A DNA stretch of 64,000 bases. Origin: Methyloversatilis discipulorum. GTDB lineage: Bacteria; Pseudomonadota; Gammaproteobacteria; Burkholderiales; Rhodocyclaceae. The notes under the pieces are model-generated. The model saw only the letters and a program-made list of their open reading frames with translations. It was not told where the DNA came from and made no database searches. Position numbers and translations under genes: made by a program. Location: assembly GCF_000527135.1 (NCBI RefSeq), contig NZ_AZUP01000001.1, positions 2,604,001 through 2,668,000 of the forward strand, read 5' to 3'. Position 1 is the stretch's first letter, and each line of letters starts with the position of its first letter. Shown in pieces: positions 26,252 through 63,952 of the stretch.

Positions 26252-26358
26252 CCCGGCGACTGTACATGATGATGACATATGCATAACATGCACGACGGCA
26301 GCCCGCCCGGGCCGCCGCCGGTATTGTCATTTCATGCTGCACAGCCAGGAGCTCAGTC

Positions 26359-27521: not shown

Positions 27522-27524
27522 GCA

Positions 27525-27545
27525 CCGCGCGGCCCGACCGCGCGG
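27525..27545. other. GC-rich intergenic hairpin
   Basis: CCGCGCGG-CCCGA-CCGCGCGG forms an 8-bp stem 4 bases after a stop codon. There is no T-run, so it is more likely a transcript-stabilising or attenuating hairpin between the two secreted-protein genes than an intrinsic terminator. Confidence 0.5.
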
Positions 27546-27596
27546 ACACATAACGGGGCGCAGGCGTCCCAGCAATCTTCAGAGAAAGGGACCTCC

Positions 27597-28412: not shown

Positions 28413-28442
28413 TTCCCCGCCAACGCCGCCGGAGCACGCCTC

Positions 28443-30836: not shown

Positions 30837-30842
30837 CCCTCC

Positions 30843-30868
30843 GCGTGGCGCAGGACGACACGCCACGC
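30843..30868. other. Intercistronic hairpin between kinase and exporter genes
   Basis: GCGTGGCG (30843-30850) and CGCCACGC (30861-30868) form a perfect 8-bp stem with a 10-base loop, 6 bp after the kinase stop and 22 bp before the exporter GTG. There is no T-tract. It may set relative expression of the two genes. Confidence 0.5.
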
Positions 30869-30890
30869 ACTCGCCTCGGAGAGCCGCACG

Positions 30891-33905: not shown

Positions 33906-33917
33906 CGGCCGCCCGGC

Positions 33918-34808: not shown

Positions 34809-34947
34809 GGCAGGCCGGGTGGCATAGGGCTTCAACGTCAGGGCCCGAGGTCAGTGCTGCAACGTCAGGCATTTACGCCATTTTACAATTACCGACGATA
34901 TACGTGCGGCGTCGCGCCGGCAATCCGACGAAGGTCTGACGGATGCG

Positions 34948-35688
34948 TCACAGGTGCACGCTGCGCCCGCCGTCCACGGCAATGATCTGGCCGGTGATGT
35001 AGGGCGCATCCTCGATCAGGAAGCGTACCGTACGTGCGATGTCCTGTGGGTCGCCTTCGCGCTGCAACAGGGTATGCCGCACGATGCGCGCACGTTCTTC
35101 CGGGTCGAACAGGTCGTTTTCCGGCCACTGGATCGGGCCCGGTGCCACGCCATTGACACGCACCCGCGGCGCCAGGTCGATGGCCAGCGCCCGGGTCAGC
35201 GTCGCCAGCGCGCCTTTCGAGGCGCTGTACAGCGCATAGCCCGGCAGCGGTCGTTCGGCGTGGATGTCGGCGATATTGACGATGCAGCCGCCGCTGTCGC
35301 GCAGCGCCGGCGCGGCCGCCTGCGACAGGAAGAGCGGCGCGCGGAAGTTGCTGCCGGTCAGGTCGTCCCAGTCGCGGACGGTGATGGTGCCGATCGGCGT
35401 CGGGTAGAAGGAAGAGGCGTTATTGATCAGTGCGTCCAGCCGGCCGAATTTCGCCAGCGTCTTGTCGACCAGTTCGGGCAGGCGGGCGGTATCGAGCAGG
35501 TCGGCCGACAGGCAGCAGGCGCTTTTCGCGCGGCGCGCATTGAATTCGTCGAGCAGCAGCAGTGCCTCTTCGGCCGACTGCCGGTAGTGGATGGCCACCC
35601 GCCAGCCGGCGTCGTGCAGCGTGCGCGCCATCTGCGCGCCAAGGCGCCGCGCCGCGCCGGTGATCAGTGCAACCTTGCCGTTTTCCAT
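34948..35688 (-). CDS. Pteridine reductase (FolM/PTR1-like SDR)
   Basis: This 246-residue short-chain dehydrogenase has the variant cofactor motif TGAARRLGAQMA (TGxxxRxG), which is characteristic of pteridine reductases. It also has NNASSFYPTPIG, the catalytic YSASK and a C-terminal DGGRSVHL. It is likely to reduce dihydrobiopterin or dihydromonapterin/folate with NADPH. The ATG at 35688 has a strong GGGAAG site. It is divergent from the methyltransferase gene (77 bp), a pairing seen in Betaproteobacteria. Confidence 0.88.
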   Translation of the reverse strand: MENGKVALITGAARRLGAQMARTLHDAGWRVAIHYRQSAEEALLLLDEFNARRAKSACCLSADLLDTARLPELVDKTLAKFGRLDALINNASSFYPTPIGTITVRDWDDLTGSNFRAPLFLSQAAAPALRDSGGCIVNIADIHAERPLPGYALYSASKGALATLTRALAIDLAPRVRVNGVAPGPIQWPENDLFDPEERARIVRHTLLQREGDPQDIARTVRFLIEDAPYITGQIIAVDGGRSVHL

Positions 35689-35765
35689 CGCTTCCCTGTC
35701 CGCCTGTTTGTCTGTCGCGACGCGATGCCGCATTATCGCGGACCCCGCGACCGGACACCCGTGCC

Positions 35766-36905
35766 ATGTCACTGCCCCAGCCCGATTCAGACGCCGTCGA
35801 GCACAGCCAGCGCCTGCTCGGTCAGATCCGCGACGAGATCACCCGAAGCGGCTGGATGCCTTTCAGCCGCTACATGGAGTGCGCGCTGTACGCGCCGGGG
35901 CTCGGCTATTACAGCGGCGCGCTGCAAAAGTTCGGCGACGACGGCGATTTCGTCACCGCGCCGGAGCTGACGCCGCTGTTCGGCCGCAGCCTCGCCCGCC
36001 AGTTGGCGGAACTGATGGCGCTGAGCGCGCCGCACCTGATCGAGGCGGGCGCCGGCAGCGGCCGCCTGGCGGTCGATGTGCTGGCCGAGCTCGACTGGCT
36101 GGGCGCCGCACCGCAGAGCTATCGCATACTCGAACTGTCGGCCGACCTGCGCGCCCGCCAGCAGGCGCTGATCGCCGCCGAACTGCCGCATCTGAGCGCA
36201 CGCGTGAGCTGGCTGGACAGTCTGCCCGACGCGTTTGACGGCGTCGTGATCGGCAACGAGGTGCTCGACGCGATGCCGGTCGAACGCCTGCGCAACGCGG
36301 CTGGCCACATCGAGCAGGCCGGACTGGCGCTCGACCCGTCCGGCCTGCCGGTACTGGACTGGCGCCCGGCGCCGGACGCACTGGCCGACGAGGCACGTAC
36401 GCTCGGCTTTACCGAGGGCTACGACAGCGAAATCAATCTCGCCGCCCGCGCCTGGGTGGCCGAGTGGGCGCGTCGCATCGGCCGCGGCGCGCTGCTGCTG
36501 ATCGACTACGGCTTCCCGCAGGCCGAGTACTACCACCCGGACCGCCGCAGCGGCACGCTGATGTGCCACTACCGCCATCACGCGCACACCGACCCGCTGT
36601 GGATGCCCGGACTCAACGACCTGACCGCACACGTCGATTTCACCGCCGTCGCCCAGGCCGCCTTCGACGCCGGCATGTCGCTGGCCGGCTACACCAGCCA
36701 GGCGAACTTCCTGCTGAACTGCGGCGTGCTCGAACTGCTGGACCGCGACGCCGACGCGCTGAGCCGGGCGAAGCAGAATGCGGCGCTGAACCAGCTCACC
36801 TCGCCGGCCGAGATGGGCGAGCTGTTCAAGGTGATCTGCCTGACCCGCGACATCGATGCGCCGCTGACCGGCTTCTCGCGCGGCGACCGCAGCCACACGC
36901 TGTAG
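35766..36905 (+). CDS. MidA/NDUFAF7-family SAM-dependent methyltransferase
   Basis: This 379-residue member of the DUF185 family begins with the marker GWMPFSRYMECALYAPGLGYY and has SAM motif EAGAGSGRLAVDVL, the post-motif VIGNEVLDAMPVERL and LLIDYGFPQAEYYHPDR. The eukaryotic NDUFAF7 relative dimethylates an arginine of a complex I subunit; bacterial roles are not well defined. The ATG at 35766 is favoured because upstream codons lack family similarity. It converges on the AAA ATPase gene (6-bp gap). Confidence 0.9.
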   Translation: MSLPQPDSDAVEHSQRLLGQIRDEITRSGWMPFSRYMECALYAPGLGYYSGALQKFGDDGDFVTAPELTPLFGRSLARQLAELMALSAPHLIEAGAGSGRLAVDVLAELDWLGAAPQSYRILELSADLRARQQALIAAELPHLSARVSWLDSLPDAFDGVVIGNEVLDAMPVERLRNAAGHIEQAGLALDPSGLPVLDWRPAPDALADEARTLGFTEGYDSEINLAARAWVAEWARRIGRGALLLIDYGFPQAEYYHPDRRSGTLMCHYRHHAHTDPLWMPGLNDLTAHVDFTAVAQAAFDAGMSLAGYTSQANFLLNCGVLELLDRDADALSRAKQNAALNQLTSPAEMGELFKVICLTRDIDAPLTGFSRGDRSHTL

Positions 36906-50404: not shown

Positions 50405-51112
50405 TCAGAACGTGCGCTTCACGTAGAGCAGCCACTTGCTGTCGCCGGTGTCCTTGCAGCGGATGCCGTTGTCGCAGATCGTGTAGAAGTTCTTGTCGGC
50501 ATTGGTGTCGACATACGCCACTGCCGCCTGCCAGCCCCCTTCGAAGTTCTTCGTCACGCCCACCTTCCAGTCGGTGAAGTCGTAGTCGTCGTAGTTCTTC
50601 ACCTTCTGGTGACCGACGTGAACGTTGGCGATCCACGACGGCATGAACTCGTAGTTCGCGTTCAGCTCGATGTAGTCCGACCCGTCCGAATCCGCACCGA
50701 AGGACTTCTTGCTGAAACCGAAGTAGTCGGTCACCGCGTACGAGTACTTCAGCTGGATGAACTTCCACGTCACCGCCGCGTTCAGTTCCAGCGTGTTCAG
50801 GGTTTCGGTGCCCCCACCTGCCAGATCGAGCTTGCCGCCCGGGAAGATGAACTGCAGGAAGCCGACGTCGAAGGTCCAGTCATCGATGGTCTTGGCGAAG
50901 CCACCGTACACGTCGATCTCGCCGGTAGCGTTCGACAGTGCCAGGTCGCTCACATTGGTGCCCCAGATGCCCAGGTAGGCGCCACTCGAATGCGCGAGGT
51001 CGAAACCGCCCTGCACCGCCGGCTTCTCCTGCGTGTAGCTGATGCCGCGGAAAATGTACTGCGAGAACAGGCCTACGTTCGCGCTGACCGTATAGGCCGG
51101 TGCGGCCGCTTC
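50405..51112 (-). repeat. Direct repeat, copy A (porin coding sequence)
   Basis: This stretch matches 63170-63877 almost base for base. Over 50521-50880 I count three mismatches in about 360 bases against the second copy. Similarity falls away in the signal-peptide region and outside the genes. Confidence 0.8.
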
Positions 51113-51187
51113 TCCGGCAAACGACGACAGCGGCAGCAGGCCTGCCAGCATTGCGGGCAGCAGCCCCTTCATTGGTGTTCTTTTCAT
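50405..51187 (-). CDS. TorF-family putative porin (copy 1)
   Basis: This 260-residue outer-membrane beta-barrel protein has a signal peptide (KGLLPAMLAGLLPLSSFAGE). The N-terminal mature strand GLFSQYIFRGISYTQ, alternating aromatic strands and a final VKRTF phenylalanine suit outer-membrane assembly. Two cysteines (ICDNGIRC) may pair. AAGAGGAGC precedes the ATG at 51187. It is 37 bp downstream of qhpG and probably co-transcribed. Mature sequence differs from the copy at 63170-63952 at only about five positions; the signal peptides differ. It could admit amines or export signals, but no function is demonstrated. Confidence 0.85.
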   Translation of the reverse strand: MKRTPMKGLLPAMLAGLLPLSSFAGEAAAPAYTVSANVGLFSQYIFRGISYTQEKPAVQGGFDLAHSSGAYLGIWGTNVSDLALSNATGEIDVYGGFAKTIDDWTFDVGFLQFIFPGGKLDLAGGGTETLNTLELNAAVTWKFIQLKYSYAVTDYFGFSKKSFGADSDGSDYIELNANYEFMPSWIANVHVGHQKVKNYDDYDFTDWKVGVTKNFEGGWQAAVAYVDTNADKNFYTICDNGIRCKDTGDSKWLLYVKRTF

Positions 51188-51224: not shown

Positions 51225-52562
51225 TCAGTGCCCGACACGAGTAGTGAGGGATTGCGCCTGCAGCCAGCGCAGCGCACGCGCCACTGCGTCGGCCGGCGCG
51301 TGCAGGTGATGGCCGATGTCGCTCGGCCCGGCCGGCGCGCCGGCCTGCAGCAGTTCGTCGAGCCGGCCAAGGTCTATGCCATCGATGAAGCGCACACCGC
51401 GCGGATGCTCGGCACTGACGACGACACGGCGCTCGACGATGAAGCCGTCCTCGACCACCGGTCGCGTCGCAAACGCCGCCGCGGCGACCGAGGCGCGCGC
51501 CAATGACGAGGCAACGGGTGGCTGGGTCACCTGCCGCCAGAAGGGCTCGTCCGACCAGTGCGTCTCAGCGGCATAGTGCCGCCGCGCCGCCTCGACGCGC
51601 GAAGCGAACACCGTCTCGATGCGTTCGCGCAGATAGCGCTGTGCCACCGCCGTCTGCGCCGGCCGTCGCAGCAGCGTGTTGATGACGGGCACCGCGGCAA
51701 TGGCACCGGAGGCCGCTTCGAACATGCCGTGACCGGACAGCGGATCGCAGGTGTAGGCCGCATCGCCGACGCGCAGATAGCCGTCGCCGACCACGCCGCC
51801 GCGCAATGCCGCCTGTATGCCACGCGCCCGCGTCGTACCCGCCGGCTTCAACTGCATGCCGAAACGTCGTGGCAGACGCGTGAGCTGCGCCAGCGCTGCC
51901 GCGTGCGCCAGATCGAGGTCACCGCCGACGGTCGCCACGCTGGCCGGCTGCACGACCACCTGGATATGGGCACGGCCCTGCGGATCGACGCCGCCCCAGG
52001 CCCAGCCGGACGGGAAGGATTCGATGAAGGTCGTGCGCGGCTGCGGCCGCGCGCCGTCGAAGGTGCGGCCCAGCGACACCAGCGTCGGACCGGCACAGCG
52101 GTCGGGCGCCATCTTCGGCGCCGTATGGCCGCGGCACTCGGCGAGCAGCGCGGCCTCGGTGCGCTGCAGCCGGCCCTCGCCGTCCTCCCAGCACACGCAC
52201 CAGCCGCCGTCGTCGCCACGCTCCAGTTCGCGCACCAGACCGTCGTGCAGGTCGACGCCTGCTGCTCTCACGTCGCGCAGCAGCGCCGCGTCGAAGGCAA
52301 CGCGGTCGACAACGAACTCGCCGTTCATCTCGACCTCCTGCGCGTTCCAGCTGGACACGCGATGCCAGCGCGGGCCGAGCAAGGCCAGCGCCTCGTGACA
52401 GCCGAGCAGCTTCAGCGCCTCGACCACACGCTGCGACAGCCCCTCCACCGCCGGCGCCGTGCGTCGCCGCCCGATGATCTGCGCCGGTATGTCATGTCGC
52501 GCCAGCGCGATCGCCAGCAGACTGGCGGCCGGGCCGGCGCCGAGTATGAGCAGCGGATTCAT
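51225..52562 (-). CDS. qhpG: QHNDH biogenesis flavoprotein monooxygenase QhpG
   Basis: This 445-residue FAD-dependent monooxygenase begins with the dinucleotide fold LLILGAGPAASLLAIAL. It has the second FAD motif RVGDAAYTCDPLSGHGMFEA and an arginine-rich substrate region. In Paracoccus QhpG hydroxylates the gamma-subunit tryptophan on the way to the CTQ cofactor. The call here rests on this fold plus its place in a complete qhp set. The ATG at 52562 has a strong GGGAGG site and overlaps the CcmF-like stop by 4 bp. Confidence 0.88.
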   Translation of the reverse strand: MNPLLILGAGPAASLLAIALARHDIPAQIIGRRRTAPAVEGLSQRVVEALKLLGCHEALALLGPRWHRVSSWNAQEVEMNGEFVVDRVAFDAALLRDVRAAGVDLHDGLVRELERGDDGGWCVCWEDGEGRLQRTEAALLAECRGHTAPKMAPDRCAGPTLVSLGRTFDGARPQPRTTFIESFPSGWAWGGVDPQGRAHIQVVVQPASVATVGGDLDLAHAAALAQLTRLPRRFGMQLKPAGTTRARGIQAALRGGVVGDGYLRVGDAAYTCDPLSGHGMFEAASGAIAAVPVINTLLRRPAQTAVAQRYLRERIETVFASRVEAARRHYAAETHWSDEPFWRQVTQPPVASSLARASVAAAAFATRPVVEDGFIVERRVVVSAEHPRGVRFIDGIDLGRLDELLQAGAPAGPSDIGHHLHAPADAVARALRWLQAQSLTTRVGH

Positions 52563-54718
52563 CCTTGCACCTCCCTGTGTGTCGGCATTGGGCGCAATGC
52601 GAGCCACAGCGCGCCGAGCGAAGTCAGCGTCAGACCGATCCACAACAGCGACGCGAAGGGCAACACCCGCAGCACCACCACGGCCTGAGCGGCCTGCGGC
52701 CCGCCTTCGAGCGCCGCCACCGCAGACGAGGTGGCGACCCACAATTGCAGATCACGCGCCCAGCCGCGGTCGATGAAGGGATGCAGCACATAGCCGGGCT
52801 GGTCGGCGTAACGCGCATAGCGGTAGTCGAGGATTTCGCAGATCTGGCGCACCGGCCCGGCGTAGCCGGCGATCGCGCTGCGGGCGTCGCGGTACAGCGT
52901 CTGCCCCTGCAGCACGCCGTGCTCCGGCGTCGAAATCTCGATCTGCGCCAGCGCGCGGAAGCTACCCTTGTCCTGTGTGCGACCGCCGTCTGGCGCGCGG
53001 TCCACGTCGAGGCCGGTGACGCGCACCGCATAGCCCTGATGCGCGCGCTGCCACGCTCCGTCGATAGCGACCAGGTGCTGCGAATAGCCATTCAGCGCCG
53101 TCGCCAGCAACCCGCCCCACAGCGCGACCACCGCACCGAGATGCAGCAGGCCGAGCGGCAGCAGGTAGCCGGCGGTACGCCGGCTGCGCCAGGCGCCGTG
53201 TGCGCTCCAGGCGGCGCAGCCGAGCGCCAGATAGGCACCAGCGATCAGGGCGGCGTCGATGCGCGGCAGCACGGCGGCGATCTGCTGCGACAGCACGCCG
53301 CTGCCGGCGTAATGACGGGCCAGCAGGCCGCCGTGCTCGAACATGGCGGCGCAGGCCAGTGTCGCGACCGCCAGCGTGATCCAGCCCAGTCGCGCCGACA
53401 GCCGGCGGGCGAAGAACCAGCCGCCGATCAACCCGGTCACGACCATGGGCAACAGCAGCAGACGCGCCAGCCCGTAGCCATCGACGTCCCACTGCGCGAA
53501 GGCCGCGCGCAGCGCCGGCAGTTCGGAACCGCGTGCCCAGTTGCGCAGCGTTTCGAAGAAGGGCTTCAGATCGTCCGGCCGCGGCAGGCCTTGCGCGCTG
53601 GCGTAGAAAGCCCAGGCGAGATGCGCCGATGCGGCCAGGCCGATGAACACGAAAATGAGCTGCGTCGCGCGCAAGCCCCAGGCGGCGAGGTTCAGGCGTT
53701 TCGCATTCGGCAGCGGGCGCACCGCGCGCAATCCGTGCAGCCACGCGGCCAGTCCGGCCAGCGACAGCAGGACAGCCAGCGTCATGTGGGCCGCCCAGGT
53801 CGACGCGCCGACGTAGCGGTGCGAACTGGCGAGCACCTCGTTGCGCGTGATACCCATCGCGATCGCGGTCAGCACCGCCGCCGCCAGCGCGGCGAAAGGC
53901 ACCCAGCGCCACATCGTGCGCCCGGGCCGCCAGCCGCCGGCGCCGTGCAGATGGGCGGCGAGCAGGCACCACACGGCGAACACCGCGGTCTGCACCGGGT
54001 CCCAGTGCCACACCTGGCCGTACATCGCGTCCTCGAAGGCCCACACCATGCCGAAGCCGATGCCGGCGGTGAGCAGTGCCCAGGCCCGTCGCGCGTGCGT
54101 CAGTGCGCCGCCCGGCCAGCGCGTTTCCCGGCCGCCGAGCGCAGCCAGCGCGGGTGCGGCGAGCGACAGTGTCCACGCATAGGCGGCGAGGATGAGTGGC
54201 GCGTGCACCAGCATCCAGATCTTCATCAGGTGCGCGTTCATGCCCTGCGATGCCGACCTCTGCAGCCAGTCGACCGGCGTCGCCGCAAACGGGCCGAGCC
54301 AGGCGGCGGTCAGCGCATACCAGGCCGCCAGCAGCGCCGCGACGTCGATGCGCTGGCTGCGCCGCGCCGCCCCGCGTGCAGCCAAGGTGCTGAGGAAGGC
54401 GGCCAGCAGCAGCGTCGTACCTTCGTCGCCACCCCACAGATTGGCCAGCTTCAGATGCAGCGGCAGCTCCGCTCCGCTGTAGATCCAGACATAGCGCAGG
54501 TCGAAGCGGTCGGCCAGCAGCAGCACGGCGAGCGCGATCAGCGCGCCCCACAACAGGCCGGCTGCGGCGCGGAGCAGCGCGGCACGGCGGGCGCTCGCCA
54601 CGCCGGCACACAGCGCGGCCGCGCCGGCGACGGCGAGCAGCGCATCGCCAAGCGCCGGCAGCACGGTACAGACCAACGCCGCCAGCGGCACGACGCCCCA
54701 CAAAAGGCGATCACGCAT
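52559..54718 (-). CDS. CcmF/CcsA-type heme-lyase-like membrane protein
   Basis: This 719-residue polytopic protein has about 14 predicted helices and the heme-handling WWD-type motif GQVWHWDPVQTAVFAVW (about residues 230-247), together with a periplasmic C-terminal segment ending RDLQLWVATSS before a last helix, as in CcmF. Typical CcmF is about 650 residues. It is placed between qhpE and qhpG with 8- and 4-bp overlaps, so it is part of the qhp operon. It may attach heme to the diheme subunit QhpA. No other ccm genes are in the window. Confidence 0.85.
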   Translation of the reverse strand: MRDRLLWGVVPLAALVCTVLPALGDALLAVAGAAALCAGVASARRAALLRAAAGLLWGALIALAVLLLADRFDLRYVWIYSGAELPLHLKLANLWGGDEGTTLLLAAFLSTLAARGAARRSQRIDVAALLAAWYALTAAWLGPFAATPVDWLQRSASQGMNAHLMKIWMLVHAPLILAAYAWTLSLAAPALAALGGRETRWPGGALTHARRAWALLTAGIGFGMVWAFEDAMYGQVWHWDPVQTAVFAVWCLLAAHLHGAGGWRPGRTMWRWVPFAALAAAVLTAIAMGITRNEVLASSHRYVGASTWAAHMTLAVLLSLAGLAAWLHGLRAVRPLPNAKRLNLAAWGLRATQLIFVFIGLAASAHLAWAFYASAQGLPRPDDLKPFFETLRNWARGSELPALRAAFAQWDVDGYGLARLLLLPMVVTGLIGGWFFARRLSARLGWITLAVATLACAAMFEHGGLLARHYAGSGVLSQQIAAVLPRIDAALIAGAYLALGCAAWSAHGAWRSRRTAGYLLPLGLLHLGAVVALWGGLLATALNGYSQHLVAIDGAWQRAHQGYAVRVTGLDVDRAPDGGRTQDKGSFRALAQIEISTPEHGVLQGQTLYRDARSAIAGYAGPVRQICEILDYRYARYADQPGYVLHPFIDRGWARDLQLWVATSSAVAALEGGPQAAQAVVVLRVLPFASLLWIGLTLTSLGALWLALRPMPTHREVQG

Positions 54719-55361
54719 GACGACGCTCCGGTCCGACATGGATTGCCGCGCTTTGCAGCCGCGCGCGCAGATCGCCCGGGACAACGCCCTGCGCAAGCAG
54801 CGCGGCGATCAGCCCGCTCATCCGCGCGGTGGCGATGCTGGCACCTCCGCCGCGTTCCGGATGACCGGCTTCGATCAGCGCGTGCGTGCCGAAGTCGGCC
54901 GCAGCGGTCGCCAGCCACGACAGCTCGCCCGGCGCGCAGCGCGCATCGCCGGTGACCGCGATGCAGTGCGCGAAGGCGGCCGGGTACGCCGGCGCGCCGC
55001 GCGCAGGCGCCGATGCGACCAGCGCGATGCCGGCGTCGGCGGCGTCGCGGCAGGCCTGCGCCAGCCGAGGGCTGGCGGTGGGCATGCCGAAGCTCATGTT
55101 GATCAACTGAACGCCCTCCCCGATCAGCCAGTAGAAGCCGTCGAGCACCGCATCGACCGTGGTTTCACGGCTGCGGTCGAACACCTGTGCCACCGCCAGC
55201 CGCGCCTGCGGCGCGTGCGCAAGCACGCAGCGCGCGATCTGGCTGCCGTGGCCGCGCGCATCGGCGTCCAGTGGCGCGGCTCCGGAGGTGGCATACACCG
55301 CGTCGCTCAAGCCGCGGTCCAGCGCACTGTCGAGCAGACCCACGCGAACGACGACGGTCAT
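54711..55361 (-). CDS. qhpE: Subtilisin-like maturation protease QhpE
   Basis: This 216-residue minimal subtilase removes the QhpC leader in characterised systems. The triad is visible: Asp11 in VGLLDSALD, His38 in RGHGSQIA and Ser175 in GGGASIATARMSG. The usual oxyanion Asn (A-x-GN) is replaced by ASAPARG. There is no signal peptide or propeptide, so it should act in the cytoplasm. It overlaps the qhpF stop (ATGA) and the CcmF-like start. Confidence 0.88.
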   Translation of the reverse strand: MTVVVRVGLLDSALDRGLSDAVYATSGAAPLDADARGHGSQIARCVLAHAPQARLAVAQVFDRSRETTVDAVLDGFYWLIGEGVQLINMSFGMPTASPRLAQACRDAADAGIALVASAPARGAPAYPAAFAHCIAVTGDARCAPGELSWLATAAADFGTHALIEAGHPERGGGASIATARMSGLIAALLAQGVVPGDLRARLQSAAIHVGPERRHA

Positions 55362-57088
55362 GCGGCGGCCTGCGGAAAATCGATGACGCAGTCGAAGGCG
55401 AGCTGCGACAAATCGCGGTGACTGACCACGACGCGCGTCGCCTGCGGCAGCAGCGCGTCGATCGCCGCCAGCGTGCGCAGTTCGAGCGCACCGTCGAGAG
55501 AGGACGTGCCCTCGTCGATCACCAGTACCGCTGGCGACATCAGCAGCGCGCGCGCCAAGGCGACCCGCTGCCGCTCGCCGCCGGACAGCGAGGCGCCGCG
55601 CGGCCCGACCGTCGCCTCCAGCCCGCCGGGCAGACGCGACAGGAAGTCGCTCACGCCGGCCGCCTGCGCCGCCTGCTCGACCTCGTCGCGACGCGCATCG
55701 GGCCGGCCGTAGCGGATGTTGTCGAACAGCGAGCCGGTGAACAGCACCGCCTCCTGCGACACGACGACGACGTGCCGGCGCAGCGTCGCGCGGTCGATGA
55801 GCTGCAGATTCACGCCGCCGATGGCCATCCAGCCAGCTGACGGTTCGAAGTGGCGATGCAGCAGATCGGTGAAGGTGGATTTGCCGCTGCCTGAATCGCC
55901 ACGCAGCCACACGCGGGCGCCGGCGGGAATGCTCAGGTTCAGGCCGCTGAAGGCCGGATGCGCCGCGCCCGGATAGCTGAAGGCGAGGTCGCGCACCACC
56001 AGGTCGCCGGTCGGCAGAACGTCTGCCGGCAGCGGCGCCGCATCGTCCGGCACGTCGAGCGAACGCAGTTCGTCGACACGGTTCAGGCCAACCTTCACGC
56101 GCTGCCACTGCAGATAGAGCCCCATCAGCGCATGCAGCGGCGCGCTGGCGCGCTGCACGCAGGTGGCGAAGGCGACCAGCGTCCCCAGAGTAAGCGGCTC
56201 GCCGGCCAGCATCGACAGGCTGCCGCCGACGAAGATGCCGATCACAGCGAGCGACAGCAGCAGGTTGGGGAAAGCGCCGCCCAGATAGCCGAACAGCTGC
56301 AGCGACAGCAGGCGCTCGCGCACCGTGCCGTGCAAGGCAGCGAGCCGTTCCAGCTCGCGCCGCTCGGCGGCGTGCGTCTGTATGCAACGCACCGCACCGA
56401 CCTTCTCGACCAGAAAGCTCGACACCTCGACACCGGCGTCGCGCGACTGCTGCGACAGCTTCTCGATGCGCGGTCGCACCCAGGACAGCACGATGCTGTT
56501 GAGCCCCATCAGCAGCGCGAGGAAGAGCGCCAGCTTGGGGCTGAGCATCCAGAGCAGCACGACGGTGCCGATCAGCGTGAGCACCGAATTGATCGCCGAC
56601 AGCACGGCGTCGACGGCGAAGCGCTGCACCTCGCCGAGGTCGCCCTCCAGCCGCGTCAGCAGGTCGCCCTGCCGCATGCGCGCGAAAAAGGCCGGCGACA
56701 GCCGCAGCACATGCGCGAACAGCGATTCGCGCATGCGATGGAGGATGCGCGCCGACGCCGCCACGTGAATGCGGCGGCAGGCGAAGCCGACCGCCAGCGC
56801 GGACAGTGCCAGCCCGACCATCCAGCCGCCGCTCGCCAGCACCGCCGCGCGATCGTGCGCGAGGATGCCGTCGTCAATCAGCGCCTTGGTCAGCAGAGGC
56901 TGGGCCAGGCCGGCCAGCACGGCGAGCAGCGACAGCAGAAGCACGGCCGCCAGCGCCGGCCACTCCGGCCGGATGAAGTCGCCGGCCCAGCGGTAGAGCG
57001 CGCCGAGACGACGGCCGCCCTGCCCCGCAGGCAGCGCCGCGACCGGCGCGGCGCTGCCTGCGGGCGCATGGAGTGCTTCTGCCCTCAT
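55358..57088 (-). CDS. qhpF: ABC transporter of QHNDH gamma subunit, QhpF
   Basis: This 576-residue half-transporter has an N-terminal six-helix exporter domain (about 40-330) and an ATPase with Walker A RGDSGSGKST, signature LSGGERQRVALARAL and Walker B VLVIDEGTSSLD. QhpF is thought to carry the crosslinked gamma subunit to the periplasm. It starts 5 bp after the qhpB stop and overlaps qhpE by 4 bp. In Paracoccus the order is E-F-G; here F precedes E. Confidence 0.9.
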   Translation of the reverse strand: MRAEALHAPAGSAAPVAALPAGQGGRRLGALYRWAGDFIRPEWPALAAVLLLSLLAVLAGLAQPLLTKALIDDGILAHDRAAVLASGGWMVGLALSALAVGFACRRIHVAASARILHRMRESLFAHVLRLSPAFFARMRQGDLLTRLEGDLGEVQRFAVDAVLSAINSVLTLIGTVVLLWMLSPKLALFLALLMGLNSIVLSWVRPRIEKLSQQSRDAGVEVSSFLVEKVGAVRCIQTHAAERRELERLAALHGTVRERLLSLQLFGYLGGAFPNLLLSLAVIGIFVGGSLSMLAGEPLTLGTLVAFATCVQRASAPLHALMGLYLQWQRVKVGLNRVDELRSLDVPDDAAPLPADVLPTGDLVVRDLAFSYPGAAHPAFSGLNLSIPAGARVWLRGDSGSGKSTFTDLLHRHFEPSAGWMAIGGVNLQLIDRATLRRHVVVVSQEAVLFTGSLFDNIRYGRPDARRDEVEQAAQAAGVSDFLSRLPGGLEATVGPRGASLSGGERQRVALARALLMSPAVLVIDEGTSSLDGALELRTLAAIDALLPQATRVVVSHRDLSQLAFDCVIDFPQAAA

Positions 57089-57093
57089 GCCGC

Positions 57094-58203
57094 TCAGCGC
57101 TGGAAGATGCGCAGCGAGGTGAGCACCTGATCGCCACCGCCCGGCGTGCGGATGTTGCCGATGCGCTTCAAGGTGGCGCTGTCATACACCGCGATGTCGC
57201 CCTGGGTGCCGCCGATGTACAGCTCCTTGCCGTCGCTCGACACATTCACGTTGTAGTAGGTGTGGTCGAGATCGACGCGGTCCATCTTGCCGGTCTTCGT
57301 GTTCACCTTCGTGAGCTGGGTATAGACGGTATAGGTTTCGTCGCGGCGCACCGGGTTCACCACGCTGGAGAACAGCACGACGCCGGCGTTCTCGAATTCC
57401 TTGAACTTCACCGTGTCCTTTTCGAGGTCCAGCGTCCAGATGCCGGCGCGCAGAGCAGACGGATCGCCTTCCGGCTTGTTCGCGTAAGCGACGTAGTAAG
57501 GCGTGGCGAACACATTGGTCTGTTCCCACTGCGGCCAGATCGCCAGCGTGTCCGGCTCGCCCTGTTCGCCGTTCTTCCAGCTGCGCCACGGGTGCTTGCC
57601 CTTGACTGCACCCGTCTGCGGGTCGAGCTTGAGCATGTCCCAGCTGAAGGCGTACAGCGTGTCGCCCTTGGCCGACCAGGCCAGCGTCGACACCCGGCGC
57701 GGCACCTTGAGCTTGCGTACCGGCTCGGCGTCGGTGCCGGCGTCGGTGCGGTAAATCGCGATGTAGGGATCGAGTACCTTGTACTCGCCCGGCAGCAGCT
57801 GGGTCGGGTTCACATAGACGGCCAGTTCCTTGCCGTCCGGGCTCAGGTCCATCGGGAAGGGCGATTTGCCACGGATGTCGCCGCCGGACAGTTCGGCGCG
57901 GAACACCTCCTTGCCGCTGTCCAGGTCGATGCCGGACACGGTTTCCCAGCGGTTGTGGATGACGTAGGCGGTCTTGCCGTCACGCGAATGCACCAGCGTG
58001 ATCGGGCTGTTGCCCATCGAGGTGTTCGGGATGGTGTGCGTCTTCACCACCTTGCGTTCCTTCGCGTCCATCACGAACACGAGGTTGGGGCGTGCGGCGG
58101 TCACCAGATAGTCCTTGGCCGCGAGGGCGGCGGTCGGGAGGGCGCCGAACAGGGCGACGCCGGAGCTGGCGGCCAGTGCGGCCGCCGTGGTCTTGATCTT
58201 CAT
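57094..58203 (-). CDS. qhpB: Quinohemoprotein amine dehydrogenase, beta subunit
   Basis: This 369-residue seven-bladed propeller has a signal peptide ending at AALAAKDYL. Repeats such as DGKTAYVIHNRW, SPDGKELAVYV, DTLYAFSWD and SSDGKELYIGG fit the QHNDH beta subunit, which shields the quinone site and holds the alpha and gamma chains. AAGAGGAAC precedes the ATG. It lies between qhpC and qhpF on the minus strand. Confidence 0.93.
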   Translation of the reverse strand: MKIKTTAAALAASSGVALFGALPTAALAAKDYLVTAARPNLVFVMDAKERKVVKTHTIPNTSMGNSPITLVHSRDGKTAYVIHNRWETVSGIDLDSGKEVFRAELSGGDIRGKSPFPMDLSPDGKELAVYVNPTQLLPGEYKVLDPYIAIYRTDAGTDAEPVRKLKVPRRVSTLAWSAKGDTLYAFSWDMLKLDPQTGAVKGKHPWRSWKNGEQGEPDTLAIWPQWEQTNVFATPYYVAYANKPEGDPSALRAGIWTLDLEKDTVKFKEFENAGVVLFSSVVNPVRRDETYTVYTQLTKVNTKTGKMDRVDLDHTYYNVNVSSDGKELYIGGTQGDIAVYDSATLKRIGNIRTPGGGDQVLTSLRIFQR

Positions 58204-58234
58204 GGTCAGCAGTTCCTCTTGTACGTTCGCGGGC

Positions 58235-58555
58235 TTACTTCGGGAACACGCTCTGCAGCGCCTTCCAGTCGCGTGCAGCGTCGTCCTTGCCGGTGTTCCA
58301 GTCCGGGTAGTTGTGCAGCGTGTCCGGCACCTGGGCCGGCCACCAGCAAGGGTCGGAACAGCCGTACAGGTCGGCTTCCATCGGCTGACACAGGCCGGCC
58401 ACGCCGAGGAAGGGATCCAGTTCCCAGCCCGGATCGAAGGTGGTGGCGCAGCCGGCGACGGCGGCGGTCATCGCAACCACCTTCTCGACCGCCTCGTCGT
58501 TCGGGGCGGCTTCGATCTGGTGGGCCTTGCGGTTCAGCGGTTTCAAGCGGTTCAT
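58235..58555 (-). CDS. qhpC: QHNDH gamma subunit precursor (CTQ-bearing)
   Basis: This 106-residue precursor carries all crosslinking residues. If the mature chain starts at Thr30, Cys36-Glu45, Cys56-Asp62 and Cys70-Asp78 correspond to the known Cys7-Glu16, Cys27-Asp33 and Cys41-Asp49 thioethers, and Cys66 with Trp72 to the Cys37-Trp43 cysteine tryptophylquinone. A 29-residue leader ([13 protein letters not shown]...) fits cleavage by QhpE. The ATG overlaps the qhpD stop by 4 bp. The product is the catalytic cofactor subunit for primary amine oxidation in the periplasm. Confidence 0.96.
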
Positions 58556-59994
58556 AGTTCAGAGCTCCTGTTCGCGACGTGCTTGTGGAGGAAGGCGGGG
58601 TTCTTTTCGAGGATTTCGAGGTAGGCCTCGATGCCGAAATCGACCCACTCCCTGAGCAGTTCGCAGTAGTGATAGACCGGCGAATGCGGGTCGCTGAAGT
58701 TGGCGTAGGACTCGTGGTAACAGCCGCCGGAACACAGGTTGCGGATGCGGCAGGTCGAGCAGCCGCGCTCCGAGCGGTCAAGCGCGCCTTCGAGGAAGGC
58801 GCCCAGCTCCGCTTTCGCGATGCCGGTATCGACGTTGCCGAAGGTCGGCAGCTCGGAGCCGGTGAAGCGGTGGCAGAGATTCAGTTCGCCCTTGTGATCG
58901 ACCGCCAGCAGCCCGATGCCGGCGCCGCAGGGCAGCGCCTTGCGACGGCCCTCGTACAGGTCGGACAGCATCTGGTGCATGTTCGAGAAGCCGATGTTGC
59001 GGCCCTCGACTGCCGCCTCGACGTACTCGCGGCCCAGCGTTTTCATCGCGTCGAACACCGCGCGCAACTCGTCACCGACCAGGTTGAAGGTGGTGATCGG
59101 ATTGCTGGTGACCGGCGCGAAGCCCACTTCGGCGAAGCCGATGTCGTCTTTCAGGTGATGGTGGATGGCCGCCACGTCGGAATAGCCTGCGGTCAGCGTG
59201 ACCCGCGCACCGACCGCCCGCGAGGTGTAGCGCGAAAGCAGCATGCGCGCCTTCTTCGCCACCACCTCGTAGGTGCCCTTGCCGCCTATCGTCTTGCGGC
59301 GCAGGTCGTGCACCGCCTGCGGGCCATCCATGCTGATCGAGATGCCGAAGGCGTGTTCGTTGAACCAGTCGGCGATCTCTTCGGTGAGCAGCGTGGCGTT
59401 GGTGGTCAGCGAGAAGTCGACCTGCTTGCCCTCCTCGCGGCAACGCTCTTCCGCGTAGGCGGTGACCGCCTTGATCAGCCGCATGTTCGACAGCGGCTCG
59501 CCGCCGAAGAACACCACGTTGACGCGGTCGCGCTTCGCCCCTTCCTTCAGCAGCAGCTCGATGCTCTTCTTCGCCTTGTCGAAGTCGAGCTTCTCGCCCT
59601 TGGACGGCGTCGTCAGGTCTTCCTTGTAGCAGTAGGTACAGCTCAGGTTGCAGCCGGTGTTCACGTTCAGCACGATGGTGCTGAGCGGAAACTCGGTCAC
59701 GCTGATCCCGGCGCCGCGGTCGGCCACGGCGGGGTCGCCGCGCAGCACGCCCAGCGACTTCAGGTCCTCGATCGCGTCGGCGATCAGCGTCGGCGAGCCG
59801 CTGCCCGAGAAGCGCTGCAGCAGCTCCTCGAAACTGACGGTCGCCTTCGGCCGCACGAAATCGAGCACCTCGGTGGTCACGCCGTCGAGATCGAAGATGC
59901 CGGTGCTCGGCACGTGCAGCAGCACGCGCCGGCCCTTCACATCCACGTCGTGGAAGGCGTGCGTATCGACGTAAAGCAGGTTGGCTTCGGACAT
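58552..59994 (-). CDS. qhpD: Radical SAM peptide crosslinking enzyme QhpD
   Basis: This 480-residue SPASM-type radical SAM enzyme forms the Cys-Asp/Glu thioether bonds of QhpC. The SAM cluster motif is CNLSCTYC (Cys115, Cys119, Cys122). The C-terminal SPASM ligands lie in [18 protein letters not shown] and a later YHYCELL. It precedes qhpC and follows qhpA by 27 bp. An N-terminal segment of about 100 residues resembles a RiPP-recognition-like module, which is inference. Confidence 0.95.
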
Positions 59995-60021
59995 GGTGGC
60001 TGTTCCGGTGACGGCCCGCGC

Positions 60022-61635
60022 TCAGCGGATCGGGGGATCGTTGAAGCGCTGCACGGTGACGATCAGCGGCGCCGTGGCCTTGACCGTGCGCGTGCCGTCC
60101 TTGACCGCGGCGGTCACCTTCAGCTCGCCCGCGTTATTGGTTCGGTACTTGCGCTGCGGGTTGGGGCCGGCGTCATTGGTCATGAACAGGCCGGTCTGGT
60201 CGATGCGGCCGGCGAACTTCGCGTCCTTCATTTCCGCCGCCACCTTGTTCAGGTTGTCGAAGGACCAGGTCGCGGGCATTGCACCGAGCTGCACGTCGTC
60301 GGCCGTACCCTGCTTGCCGTCGGCGCCCACCGTGTAGGCCAGCGCTTCCAGCTGGGCCGGCACCTTGTTCATCGAGCCGCCGTTGCCGCCGACACGGGCC
60401 ATCGGGTGGTCGGGCGTGATCTTCACGTAGTCGATGCGCTGATAGACCTTGAGCGCGTCGCCGCTGCGTGCGTTACCCACCTTCACCTCGCGCGGTCCGG
60501 TCACCGCGTCCTTCGCCGACTCGACCTCGACCACCACGCGCTCGGCGCTGCGCTCGGCTACCGACACCACCTTCACGCCATTGCCCAGGCTCACGTCGCC
60601 GTCGAGACCGACGCCGTTGATGACGAGGCGGCCGCGGGTACCCGCCTTCAGCGCGGCCGGCTGCACCGACAGCACCATCGGCGTGGCGCCGTCGGCGCGC
60701 ACGGCGCGCAGCGTGCCGCCGATCGCGTCGTAACCGGACTCGAACCAGCGACCCGACAGCGAACGCCCCCCGTCGGCCAGCGTCATGACCTGGTTGATTT
60801 CGCGCTCGCCGCTCTTCAGCGTCGCGCGCCATTCGTGACCGGTGTAGACGAGTGCCGATCCGGTCAGCTGTTCGCTCGTGCCGTTCTCGTAGCGCACGGT
60901 CATGCTGACCGAATAGGCGTCGTTGCCGGTGCGCTTTACCGTGGCCGTACCTTCGTAGGCACCAGTTCCCGGCTTGTGGCCGACCAGGCGCCAGCTGCCG
61001 CTCGCGTCGGCCGGCTTCTGCGCCTTCCACGTGTTCCAGCTGTCGGACTCGAAGCCGTACACCTTGCCCAGTTCGACCGCGGCCTCGCCGGTGGCGATGT
61101 CGAACCAGTTGCGGTCGCGACCGCCAGCCTGGATCTCGATCGCCGGAAACTGACCGACATGGAAGTGCACCAGCTTGCGCCAGTCCGCCTCGGTGCGACG
61201 CTGTACCGCGATGCGGCCGTAGGAGTGGCAGCGCGCGCAGGTGTCGCCGATCAGCTTGTTCTCCGGGTGCTCGACCACGCTGGGCGTGCGGTCGACGATG
61301 TAGCGGTGCGCCGCCGACTCGTCCGGCGACAGGCCGTAGGCGTCCGACAGGTATTTGACGATGGCGCCGCGCTCGTCGTGGCTCAGCTTGACGCCGTGCG
61401 CGAAGGTCATGCGGGCGACCGTCATGTCCCAGCCTTCGGGCGTGCGGCGGCTTTCGCTGATGCGGTCCCACTTGCCGTCGCCCTTGGCGGAGTGACAGGA
61501 CGCGCACTTGGTATTGACCAGCGCCTCGCCCGCCGGGGCGGCCGCGTAGGCGCCAGCGACGCAAAGCTGGGTGAGCAGGCCGGTGGCAAGCGCGAGCGCT
61601 CGCTGCGACCTCCTGTTGAGTACTGTTCTGTGCAT
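60022..61635 (-). CDS. qhpA: Quinohemoprotein amine dehydrogenase, alpha (diheme) subunit
   Basis: This 537-residue subunit has a signal peptide (to GAYAAAP). It has two c-type hemes, CASCH at 44-48 and CARCH at 133-137, followed by three beta-rich domains (SYGRIAVQRR onward). It accepts electrons from the quinone of QhpC and passes them to a soluble carrier. AAGAGG precedes the ATG. It is the first gene of the minus-strand operon qhpA-D-C-B-F-E-ccmF-like-qhpG. Confidence 0.95.
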   Translation of the reverse strand: MHRTVLNRRSQRALALATGLLTQLCVAGAYAAAPAGEALVNTKCASCHSAKGDGKWDRISESRRTPEGWDMTVARMTFAHGVKLSHDERGAIVKYLSDAYGLSPDESAAHRYIVDRTPSVVEHPENKLIGDTCARCHSYGRIAVQRRTEADWRKLVHFHVGQFPAIEIQAGGRDRNWFDIATGEAAVELGKVYGFESDSWNTWKAQKPADASGSWRLVGHKPGTGAYEGTATVKRTGNDAYSVSMTVRYENGTSEQLTGSALVYTGHEWRATLKSGEREINQVMTLADGGRSLSGRWFESGYDAIGGTLRAVRADGATPMVLSVQPAALKAGTRGRLVINGVGLDGDVSLGNGVKVVSVAERSAERVVVEVESAKDAVTGPREVKVGNARSGDALKVYQRIDYVKITPDHPMARVGGNGGSMNKVPAQLEALAYTVGADGKQGTADDVQLGAMPATWSFDNLNKVAAEMKDAKFAGRIDQTGLFMTNDAGPNPQRKYRTNNAGELKVTAAVKDGTRTVKATAPLIVTVQRFNDPPIR

Positions 61636-62021
61636 CGAGTACCTCTTGAGTTGTTGGCCATGAATGCCGCCCGGTGGCGATGCGGCGTCTGTGGATCACG
61701 GCGCAGGCGGAGCTCGCCGGCCGTTGATCGACTATAGGAGTGGGGTCTGCGCGGGCGTTATCGCGAACCGGCCAGAGGTTCCGTTCGCACTATCAAGAAT
61801 CGGCCCGTTCGTCCGGACGCCGGCCGGCGGTGTATTGCCGGGGGATGTGGGCAGGCCTACCATGGGTTTCAGAGGAGTCCGGGCGAGCCGGGCGGGTCCG
61901 GTCTGCGCGCCGGAACGCACGCCGATCCGCAGACACAGAGAACGCCGCCATTTTCCGAAGCGTCATCCGTCCTGCCAGACAGCATGGGTTGCGCCGATCA
62001 CGAGCGGCGAAGGGAGTGAGC
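61636..62021. promoter_or_regulatory. Divergent qhpA/qhpR control region
   Basis: This 386-bp gap is the only one over 300 bp in the window. On the minus strand a TATAGT (61731-61736) could be the qhpA -10, leaving a leader of about 90 bases; no good -35 is at 17 bp, which fits an activator-dependent promoter. The qhpR start has AGGGAG at 62011-62016. I see no terminator, tRNA or strong symmetric operator. AraC-type half-sites are likely but cannot be named. Confidence 0.5.
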
Positions 62022-63086
62022 GTGAATACCGTTGAATCCACCCGCGAGATGCTGTCGCACGAACAGCCGGTCGGTCCCCAGGTGTGCTGCTTCGTCACCG
62101 AGGATCCCTGTCAGCACGCGGACAGCCTGCCGCAGTGGTCGCAGGAATACCTGCAACTGACCAGCGGTGAGTTCCGCGGCCGCATCGTCGAAATGTCGTC
62201 CGGCCCGGTGCAGCTGTTCCGCGAATCGATGGACCAGGTGATCGACGAGAAGGGCCATCCGCGGCCGTCGTCCTACACCTTCGGCGTGCCGATCAACGTG
62301 CATCCGGACGGCTACTGGCAGGCGCAGGAGGTGCGCCGCGACAGCCTGCTCACGCTGCTGCCGGGCGAGGAACTTCACTTCCGCACACCGCGGATGTCGG
62401 ACATCTTCGTCGCCGTGATCGACGCCGACACGCTGGATGGCTACGCCGAATCGGTGCTCGGGCGCGAAGTCGCGAGCGTGGTGGCGCGGACGCAGATGCA
62501 GACACTGCAGTCAGGTGCGGCGATGCGCTACCGGCAGGTGCTGCACGAGGTGATGTGCTGCGTGCAGTCGACACCCGAGGTGCTGCAGCACGCGGCCTCC
62601 TGTCAGGCGGTATCGGAATCCATCATCAATGCATCGCTCACCGCGCTGCTGTCGATTTCCGAGCGACCCGAGCGCAGCCGCGGCGGCCACGCCATCCACC
62701 GCGCCATCGTCGAACGCGCCCGGCAGTACATCCTTGCCAACCGCGACGCGCCACCATCGGTCAGCGACCTCAGCGTGCATCTGAAGATGAGCCGGCGCGG
62801 CCTGCACCATGCCTTCATGAACGTGCTGGGCATCAGCCCGGTCACCTTCCTGCGTTACGTGCGCCTGCACGGCGTACGAAAGGACCTGCTGCATGGCGGC
62901 CCGGACATGTCGGTCAGCAGCGCCGCCTGCAAATGGGGCTTCTGGCACATGGGCATGTTCTCGTCCTACTACAAGGCGCTGTTCGGCGAGTCGCCGTCGT
63001 CCACGCTGAAGCGACCGCCGCAGGTGCGGGCGCAGCCGTGGTCGTCGGGCACCGGCGACTGGCCCTTCCCCGGATTGTCGGACTGA
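62022..63086 (+). CDS. qhpR: AraC-family regulator of the qhp genes
   Basis: This 354-residue regulator starts at a GTG (62022) preceded by AGGGAG; another GTG is at 62016. The N-terminal 230 residues are a sensing domain with no recognised motif. The C-terminal AraC/XylS double HTH includes PPSVSDLSVHLKMSRRGLHHAF and VSSAACKWGFWHMGMFSSYYKALFGESPS (cited in parts: VSSAACKWGF and FSSYYKALFGESPS). QhpR activates the amine-dehydrogenase operon in response to amines in Paracoccus. It is divergent from qhpA. Confidence 0.9.
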   Translation: MNTVESTREMLSHEQPVGPQVCCFVTEDPCQHADSLPQWSQEYLQLTSGEFRGRIVEMSSGPVQLFRESMDQVIDEKGHPRPSSYTFGVPINVHPDGYWQAQEVRRDSLLTLLPGEELHFRTPRMSDIFVAVIDADTLDGYAESVLGREVASVVARTQMQTLQSGAAMRYRQVLHEVMCCVQSTPEVLQHAASCQAVSESIINASLTALLSISERPERSRGGHAIHRAIVERARQYILANRDAPPSVSDLSVHLKMSRRGLHHAFMNVLGISPVTFLRYVRLHGVRKDLLHGGPDMSVSSAACKWGFWHMGMFSSYYKALFGESPSSTLKRPPQVRAQPWSSGTGDWPFPGLSD

Positions 63087-63169: not shown

Positions 63170-63877
63170 TCAGAAGGTGCGCTTCACGTAGATCAGCCAC
63201 TTGCTGTCGCCGGTGTCCTTGCAGCGGATGCCGTTGTCGCAGATGGTGTAGAAGTTCTTGTCCGCGTTGGTGTCCACATACGCCACCGCCGCCTGCCAGC
63301 CCCCTTCGAAGTTCTTCGTCACGCCCACCTTCCAGTCGGTGAAGTCGTAGTCGTCGTAGTTCTTCACCTTCTGGTGACCGACGTGAACGTTGGCGATCCA
63401 CGACGGCATGAACTCGTAGTTCGCGTTCAGCTCGATGTAGTCCGATCCGTCCGAATCCGCGCCGAAGGACTTCTTGCTGAAACCGAAGTAGTCGGTCACC
63501 GCGTACGAGTACTTCAGCTGGATGAACTTCCACGTCACCGCCGCGTTCAGTTCCAGCGTGTTCAGGGTTTCGGTGCCCCCACCTGCCAGATCGAGCTTGC
63601 CGCCCGGGAAGATGAACTGCAGGAAGCCGACGTCGAAGGTCCAGTCGTCCACTGTCTTCGCGAAGCCGCCATAGACGTCGATCTCGCCGGTCGCGTTCGA
63701 CAGCGCCAGGTCGCTCACATTGGTGCCCCAGACGCCCAGGTAGGCGCCACTCTCGTGGGCGAGGTCGAAACCGCCCTGCACCGCCGGATTCTCCTGCGTG
63801 TAGCTGATGCCGCGGAAGATGTACTGCGAGAACAGGCCTACGTTCGCGCTGACGGTATAGGCCGGTGCCGCCGCTTC
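63170..63877 (-). repeat. Direct repeat, copy B (porin coding sequence)
   Basis: This is the counterpart of 50405-51112, in the same orientation 12.8 kb away. The pair frames the complete qhp operon together with qhpR, which makes it a substrate for homologous recombination or gene conversion. Confidence 0.8.
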
Positions 63878-63952
63878 TTCGGCGTGCACCGTGACGGATG
63901 CTGCGCACAGCGCCAACGCGGCGAGCGGGAGACGGATGAAGTTTGTGTTCAT
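63170..63952 (-). CDS. TorF-family putative porin (copy 2)
   Basis: This 260-residue outer-membrane protein has a signal peptide (MNTNFIRLPLAALALCAAS, cleavage near VHAEEA) unlike that of copy 1. From EAAAPAYTVS onward it is almost identical, with about five differences (N for K, E for S, V for I twice, and I for L near the C-terminus). Its own upstream region begins at 63953. The ATG has AAAGGT upstream. It lies just outside qhpR, on the opposite strand. Confidence 0.85.
   Translation of the reverse strand: MNTNFIRLPLAALALCAASVTVHAEEAAAPAYTVSANVGLFSQYIFRGISYTQENPAVQGGFDLAHESGAYLGVWGTNVSDLALSNATGEIDVYGGFAKTVDDWTFDVGFLQFIFPGGKLDLAGGGTETLNTLELNAAVTWKFIQLKYSYAVTDYFGFSKKSFGADSDGSDYIELNANYEFMPSWIANVHVGHQKVKNYDDYDFTDWKVGVTKNFEGGWQAAVAYVDTNADKNFYTICDNGIRCKDTGDSKWLIYVKRTF

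What the first reader, a model, noticed from the sequence alone, without database searches (positions are those of the whole stretch)
51225..63086. Complete QHNDH locus with rearranged order and an added CcmF-like gene
All known qhp functions are present (A, D, C, B, F, E, G and the AraC-type regulator). The order differs from the Paracoccus set as I recall it (E-F-G becomes F-E-x-G), and a CcmF-like gene is inserted with 8- and 4-bp overlaps. It is a full set of genes for making, crosslinking, exporting and controlling a peptide-derived quinone enzyme.
Basis: partly seen in the sequence, partly recalled or inferred. Interest (0 to 1): 0.85.

Follow-up and report, generated by a model that had tools for sequence, protein, structure and literature searches.

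The report
Amine dehydrogenase operon with heme-handling extra
This is a complete set of genes for a bacterial enzyme that oxidises amines with a cofactor made from its own tryptophan; the gene order is an ordinary variant, but one added gene is a recurring, apparently unstudied relative of the machinery that attaches heme to proteins.

Summary
Six of the nine gene products match NCBI equivalog models for QHNDH (quinohemoprotein amine dehydrogenase) above their cut-offs. QhpF and the AraC-type regulator are identified by domain family and position. The CcmF-like gene lies between qhpE and qhpG with 8- and 4-bp overlaps.

The rearranged order is not news. Published work calls qhp order variable (PMC7876137), and a 2015 Methyloversatilis paper prints qhpRADCBFE (PMC5023235).

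Best reading: a dedicated heme-handling accessory for QhpA/QHNDH maturation. Against it: QhpA has ordinary CXXCH sites with or without this gene, many QHNDH genomes lack it, and 3 genomes have it without a detected qhpD.

The parts
60022..61635 (-). qhpA, alpha subunit with two CXXCH heme sites (CASCH, CARCH)
   Evidence: TIGR03908 727.8 bits; PF09098, PF14930, PF09099, PF09100; PDB 1jju_A E=5.8e-129
58552..59994 (-). qhpD, radical SAM maturase that makes the Cys-Asp/Glu thioethers (function from PMC7876137)
   Evidence: TIGR03906 799.8 bits, cut-off 453
58235..58555 (-). qhpC, gamma subunit precursor; Cys36-Glu45, Cys56-Asp62, Cys70-Asp78 and Cys66/Trp72 line up with the crosslink and CTQ residues of the solved chains (the list of pairs is recalled)
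   Evidence: NF037958 165.9 bits; PDB 1jju_C and 1jmx_G alignments
57094..58203 (-). qhpB, beta subunit
   Evidence: TIGR03907 493.5 bits
55358..57088 (-). qhpF, ABC exporter
   Evidence: PF00664 and PF00005; census profile and position
54711..55361 (-). qhpE, subtilisin-like leader protease
   Evidence: NF049966 212.8 bits, cut-off 165
52559..54718 (-). CcmF-like heme-handling membrane protein (719 aa): P-His H172/H300, TM-His H258/H526, W237-x-W239-D240, Q243 in place of E. coli CcmF Glu246
51225..52562 (-). qhpG, flavin monooxygenase (peptidyl Trp dihydroxylase)
   Evidence: NF049967 428.6 bits; PDB 7ctq E=1.4e-61
50405..51187 (-). TorF/Gcw_chp-family putative porin, 37 bp after qhpG; probable last gene of the operon (inferred)
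   Evidence: TIGR02001 155.2 bits, PF09694 251.9 bits; next to qhp genes in 10 of 80 loci
62049..63086 (+). qhpR-type AraC regulator, divergent from qhpA; start codon uncertain (frame open from 61740)
   Evidence: PF12833 76.7 bits; best NCBIfam EutR, below cut-off; candidate starts
63170..63952 (-). second TorF-family porin copy beyond the regulator
   Evidence: TIGR02001 161.4 bits; 96% identical to the first copy over 715 bp

Best explanation
The locus is a qhp operon that makes periplasmic QHNDH, plus an accessory heme-handling protein of the CcmF fold. Known steps (PMC7876137, for the shared genes): QhpD crosslinks QhpC, QhpG dihydroxylates its Trp, QhpE cuts the leader, QhpF exports it; [quoted passage not shown] Inferred here: the CcmF-like protein receives heme in the periplasm through its two P-His residues and WxWD loop, holds a transmembrane b-heme through its two TM-His residues, and loads or readies heme on apo-QhpA beside the general Ccm system, so that alpha-subunit hemylation keeps pace with induced production of the gamma subunit. 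Shown: gene content, recurrence with qhp, CcmF fold (predicted model), the four ligand histidines, presence beside an ordinary CcmF, remodelled WWD site. Inferred: that it binds heme, that QhpA is its client, and that it is a lyase rather than another heme-dependent helper.
Against: QhpA heme sites do not differ: two CXXCH in 20 of 21 loci with the gene and in 76 of 80 without (the other 5 rows were not inspected; duplicates L124 and L125 are counted), so no odd motif of the NrfA kind explains a dedicated lyase. All 20 qhpD genomes of the family have an ordinary CcmF, 19 over the cut-off and one in two pieces. The gene is absent, at E <= 1e-40, from 41 of the 49 genomes searched out of the 64 whose locus lacks it, among them all 7 with Paracoccus-titled loci (L034, L037, L040, L045, L062, L067, L077), so it is dispensable for QHNDH in general. 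E. coli CcmF Glu246, required for synthase function (PMC10746174), is Gln in 43 of 43, and Trp236, whose change severely impairs synthase, is Tyr or Phe: ordinary synthase chemistry may be lost. None of the nine operon proteins matched a CcmH/NrfF/NrfG model. Three genomes (G624, G667, G671) have the gene without a detected qhpD, on contigs of 3.6, 3.7 and 7.4 kb. In four genomes (G524, G527, G528, G530) it is on a different contig from qhpD with no qhp gene detected nearby, and in G582 it is about 96 kb from qhpD.
Confidence: 0.55

Rival explanations
1. Redox helper rather than lyase: the protein holds two hemes permanently (P-heme and b-heme) and links QHNDH, or the maturing QhpA, to the membrane quinone pool. 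It would accept electrons from the enzyme or drive the final oxidation of dihydroxy-Trp to CTQ.
For: All four heme-ligand histidines are kept while the synthase-required Glu246 is invariantly Gln, and an extra near-invariant His (H238, 42 of 43) sits in the heme loop. Final CTQ oxidation is unassigned and proposed to use the alpha-subunit hemes.
Against: The gene can sit with maturation genes where A, B and C were not detected (L030, L165), which fits maturation better than respiration. Many qhpD genomes lack it. No redox measurement exists.
Confidence: 0.15
2. Heme delivery to some other c-type cytochrome that partners QHNDH, for example its electron acceptor, rather than to QhpA.
For: The association is with qhp as a whole; co-variation does not single out QhpA (r 0.76 with QhpA, 0.72 with QhpD).
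Against: Among the nine operon proteins only QhpA matched a cytochrome c model. Neighbouring genes of the other loci were not screened for cytochromes.
Confidence: 0.1
3. Neutral passenger or decaying CcmF paralogue carried in some qhp operons.
For: Patchy distribution: 64 of 80 loci lack it (some of these contigs are short, and 8 of 49 such genomes searched have it elsewhere).
Against: No internal stop in any hit; motifs invariant across members down to 43% identity; recurrence in several lineages and overlapping reading frames.
Confidence: 0.07
4. Ordinary System I CcmF or NrfE simply relocated into the operon.
For: Same Pfam family and fold; sources name it CcmF or CcsA.
Against: 57 bits against TIGR00353 (cut-off 569), where the genome's own CcmF scores 753. 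E. coli CcmF and NrfE and the genome's CcmF agree at Trp236, Trp239, Phe241 and Glu246; the window's protein differs at all four.
Confidence: 0.06

Closest known systems
qhp operon of Paracoccus denitrificans / Pseudomonas putida (QHNDH)
   Same: All structural, maturation, export and regulator genes; A-D-C-B core order; crosslink and CTQ residues of QhpC.
   Different: Order of F, E, G; an extra CcmF-like gene and a TorF-family porin gene. Paracoccus-type loci seen here read <G A D C B E F.
qhpRADCBFE of Methyloversatilis universalis FAM5 (PMC5023235, abstract and passages seen)
   Same: Same genus as the nearest loci and same order; Qhp transcripts about 10-fold higher on methylamine (listed q-values 0.68, 0.65 and 0.00); a qhpA deletion brought activity down to background but did not impair growth on methylamine.
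   Different: The passages name seven genes; the CcmF-like gene, qhpG and the porin are not described in them. A plasmid for an undefined 'qhpX' is listed; the passages do not say which gene that is.
System I heme lyase CcmF (PDB 6ZMQ; E. coli CcmF)
   Same: Fold, four heme-ligand His, WxWD core.
   Different: HEG to DEG/EEG, Trp236 to Tyr/Phe, Phe241 to His, Glu246 to Gln; far below the TIGR00353 cut-off; no CcmH partner among the operon proteins; linked to qhp.
NrfE, dedicated CcmF paralogue for CXXCK in NrfA (PMC12285233, passages seen)
   Same: An extra CcmF paralogue encoded with its presumed client beside a general Ccm system.
   Different: Client sites here are plain CXXCH; no nrfF/nrfG-type gene in the operon; WWD loop differs from NrfE.

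Membership tests
QHNDH / qhp operon | QhpA, B, C subunits matching equivalog models | tested here: met
   TIGR03908, TIGR03907, NF037958 above cut-off
QHNDH / qhp operon | Maturation set QhpD, QhpE, QhpG matching equivalog models | tested here: met
   TIGR03906, NF049966, NF049967 above cut-off
QHNDH / qhp operon | ABC exporter QhpF beside qhpE | tested here: met
   PF00664 and PF00005; position and census profile
QHNDH / qhp operon | Crosslink and CTQ residues in QhpC, two CXXCH in QhpA | tested here: met
   Alignment to 1jju_C and 1jmx_G (pair list recalled); CASCH and CARCH in QhpA
QHNDH / qhp operon | Amine-inducible enzyme activity | not testable with these tools
   Reported for relatives only (PMC5023235 passages)
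System I CcmF | Cytochrom_C_asm domain (PF01578) and CcmF fold | tested here: met
System I CcmF | Score above the TIGR00353 CcmF/NrfE cut-off | tested here: not met
   57.2 vs 569 bits
System I CcmF | P-His1/2 and TM-His1/2 | tested here: met
   H172, H258 in 43 of 43; H300, H526 in 42 of 42
System I CcmF | WWD residues most needed for synthase function (E. coli Trp229, Glu246; Tyr231, Trp236, Trp240, Asp243) | tested here: not met
   Trp229, Trp240, Asp243 kept in 43 of 43; Glu246 is Gln in 43 of 43; Trp236 is Tyr or Phe; Tyr231 is Phe 29, Leu 8, Tyr 6 (requirements)
NrfE dedicated lyase | Client with a CXXCK site | tested here: not met
   Only CXXCH found in QhpA; two sites in 96 of 101 rows, the other 5 not inspected
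NrfE dedicated lyase | Linked NrfF/NrfG partners and TIGR03145 cut-off | tested here: not met
   55.2 vs 927 bits; no such match among the nine operon proteins
Heme-binding protein | Binds heme | not testable with these tools
   Inferred from ligand residues only

The most novel reading that the evidence does not exclude
An apparently undescribed subfamily of CcmF-fold proteins is a client-specific heme device of QHNDH: with Glu246 swapped for Gln and an added His in the heme loop it no longer acts as a general cytochrome c synthase. It instead readies the two QhpA hemes for, or carries electrons during, the last oxidation that turns dihydroxy-tryptophan into CTQ.
Probability: 0.2. Interest if true: 0.75.

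Novelty: new variant of a known kind. Interest (0 to 1): 0.48.

Why it matters
The last oxidation to CTQ is not assigned to an enzyme (PMC7876137 only proposes the QhpA hemes), and nothing seen here says how QhpA gets its hemes. A heme-handling gene that travels with qhp in some lineages gives both questions a testable candidate, and a natural set of CcmF variants in which residues known to be needed for synthase function have changed.

Tried and rejected
Replacement of System I: rejected. No ResB in the window's genome, and all 20 qhpD genomes of the family have an ordinary CcmF; ResB-family matches occur in 7 of the 20, several of them weak and partial.

Odd heme motif in QhpA: rejected, CXXCH with and without the gene.

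Spread on plasmids: tblastn against 72,556 plasmid records gave 4 weak matches, none covering 80% of the query.

Class-wide sample: uninformative, 2 qhpD (E <= 1e-120) and 1 CcmF-like hit (the window itself) in 369 genomes.

Literature: no held paper contains both CcmF and quinohemoprotein amine dehydrogenase, CcmF and amine dehydrogenase, or radical SAM, QHNDH and cytochrome c biogenesis together. One search listed 20 of 46 papers on looser terms, of which I looked only into passages of PMC12285233 and at PMC7876137. The library is open-licence PMC only; Nakai et al. 2014, which PMC5023235 cites for the qhp biogenesis genes, was not read.

Fold list: in the 50 rows shown, nothing besides CcmF and CcsBA stood out.

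Limits of the counts. The 80 loci are the best 80 of 451 relatives of the window's QhpD, so 16 of 80 leans towards near relatives; 7 of 20 in the family sample is the fairer figure. Some of the 64 loci without the gene are short contigs, and 15 of those 64 genomes were not searched. The first QhpC profile was spoilt by read-through segments and was replaced by a single-sequence search., and 61 and 63, are taken to have drawn the same genomes because numbers and handles agree; the tool does not say so.

Changed on re-check: the Paracoccus count (7, not 6), the G582 distance (96 kb, not 98), and F-E-G loci (5, two of them with the gene elsewhere).

Full report
WHAT IS THERE. The window lies in a 4.31 Mb single-contig genome. 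Its QhpD is closest to Methyloversatilis loci (96% identity). On the minus strand run qhpA, D, C, B, F, E, a CcmF-like gene (X below), qhpG and a TorF-family porin gene (T); an AraC-type regulator is divergent from qhpA. Six of the gene products exceed NCBIfam equivalog cut-offs. QhpC aligns to the solved gamma subunits with all crosslink and CTQ positions kept (the pair list is recalled). QhpG matches peptidyl tryptophan dihydroxylase 7ctq. Gene junctions from A to G are tight: 27, -4, 31, 5, -4, -8 and -4 bp, as expected of one transcript (inferred).

GENE ORDER. I fetched the 80 best QhpD loci of 451 and 22 loci from 19 of the 20 qhpD-bearing genomes among 150 of the window's family, the twentieth being the window's own, and placed nine gene profiles plus T on them (recounted). 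A-D-C-B is the fixed core: found in that order in 77 of 80; L031 and L051 are short contigs, and L030 shows no A, C or B on the stretch held. F, E, G and R vary. Sixteen of 80 read <G A D C B E F (Paracoccus and relatives) and 22 of 80 read G A D C B F E (one of these, L061, followed by X). The window's run A D C B F E X G occurs in 6 of 80 (L006, L007, L008, L009, L013, L070); in the family sample it occurs in L123 and L128 and in L124 and L125, which look like L008 and L070 again. F-E-G without X between occurs in five loci: L012, L016 and L063 without X, and L019 and L021 with X after B. Print already says that order varies (PMC7876137, Introduction and Discussion read) and gives qhpRADCBFE for M. 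universalis FAM5, with about 10-fold higher Qhp transcripts on methylamine and activity at background in a qhpA deletion that still grew on methylamine (PMC5023235, passages). So the order is ordinary.

THE CCMF-LIKE GENE, DISTRIBUTION. It is in 16 of 80 loci (L006-L010, L013, L015, L019, L021, L027, L028, L030, L035, L041, L061, L070): after E, after B, or after D. On the QhpD tree the label needs 11 changes (at least 7 forced by starred branches), against a mean of 19.3 for shuffled labels (quick method). Family sample: 20 of 150 genomes have qhpD over the cut-off and 7 have X at E <= 1e-60, all 7 among the 20, with gaps of about 3.8 to 6.5 kb to a qhpD (Fisher p=2.6e-7). Order of the Emcibacter loci, 147 genomes: 15 qhpD, 11 X, 8 both, 3 X only. 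Those three sit on contigs of 3.6, 3.7 and 7.4 kb, so missing sequence is likely but not shown. Of 50 genomes searched (49 of the 64 whose locus lacked X, plus L061), 8 of the 49 had X elsewhere: beside a second qhp cluster in P. jinjuensis (L154), beside F, E and G on what looks like the other half of a split cluster (L156), on a different contig from qhpD in four Emcibacter-group genomes, and on contigs of 3.3 and 7.5 kb in two, with no qhp gene detected there. In L030 the order is D, X, G, F, E with no A, C or B detected; in L165 it is D then X with no other qhp gene detected. In both, X stays with the maturase.

HOW IT MOST LIKELY WORKS. The QHNDH alpha subunit has two c-hemes, and PMC7876137 proposes that these hemes carry out the last CTQ oxidation. 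X adds to System I: all 20 qhpD genomes of the family have an ordinary CcmF, one of them in two pieces. A dedicated heme-handling helper for QhpA maturation is therefore the simplest reading, like NrfE beside CcmF (PMC12285233, passages). Two facts weigh against a plain copy of NrfE: the QhpA sites are CXXCH with or without X, and the loop has lost a residue that the synthase needs. A heme-dependent redox helper is the main rival. Genomes without X, all 7 Paracoccus-titled ones searched among them, show that it is not needed in general.

PORIN. T follows qhpG by 37 bp and is next to qhp genes in 10 of 80 loci, in two of them without X (L011, L012). The window, L008 and L070 each carry two copies, one on each side. 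Within each genome the two copies are more alike than they are to the other two genomes' copies (91.1, 89.1 and 95.6% within, at most 87.2% between these three), which suggests gene conversion or separate duplications. A role in amine uptake is a guess.

VERDICT.

Noticed in passing
window 50405-51187 and 63170-63952: Two near-identical TorF-family porin genes flank the qhp locus as direct repeats; L008 and L070 have the same arrangement, and pairs are more alike within a genome than between genomes, which suggests gene conversion and a possible recombination deletion of the whole cluster.
   Followed up: partly
L157-L163, L165, L166: In Emcibacter-group genomes the CcmF-like gene often sits near aroA/cmk-like and GST/SelO-like genes (names by eye from ORF starts), alone or with D or A-D-C-B; orphan copies look left behind after the other qhp genes moved.
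   Followed up: partly
L154 and L014: P. jinjuensis carries two A-D-C-B clusters, one of them beside the CcmF-like gene; G100 and G103 also have two qhp clusters with the gene in one of them.
   Followed up: no
L084, L056: Records titled Nocardioides marinus and Enemella evansiae carry QhpD nested among Leisingera and Rhodobacteraceae sequences: mislabelled or contaminated assemblies, or recent transfer.
   Followed up: no
L004 (genome 3415617-3416207): A further PF01578 protein of the genome, away from qhp, next to what looks by eye like a CBS-domain transporter gene.
   Followed up: no
window 24439-36896: Six long minus-strand open frames without a Pfam match at E 1e-10, next to a protein kinase and an AAA ATPase; some may be the wrong frame.
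   Followed up: no
window 52559-54718, residue C627: An invariant Cys (42 of 42) in the C-terminal periplasmic part of the CcmF-like family, at a gap in the genome's own CcmF.
   Followed up: no
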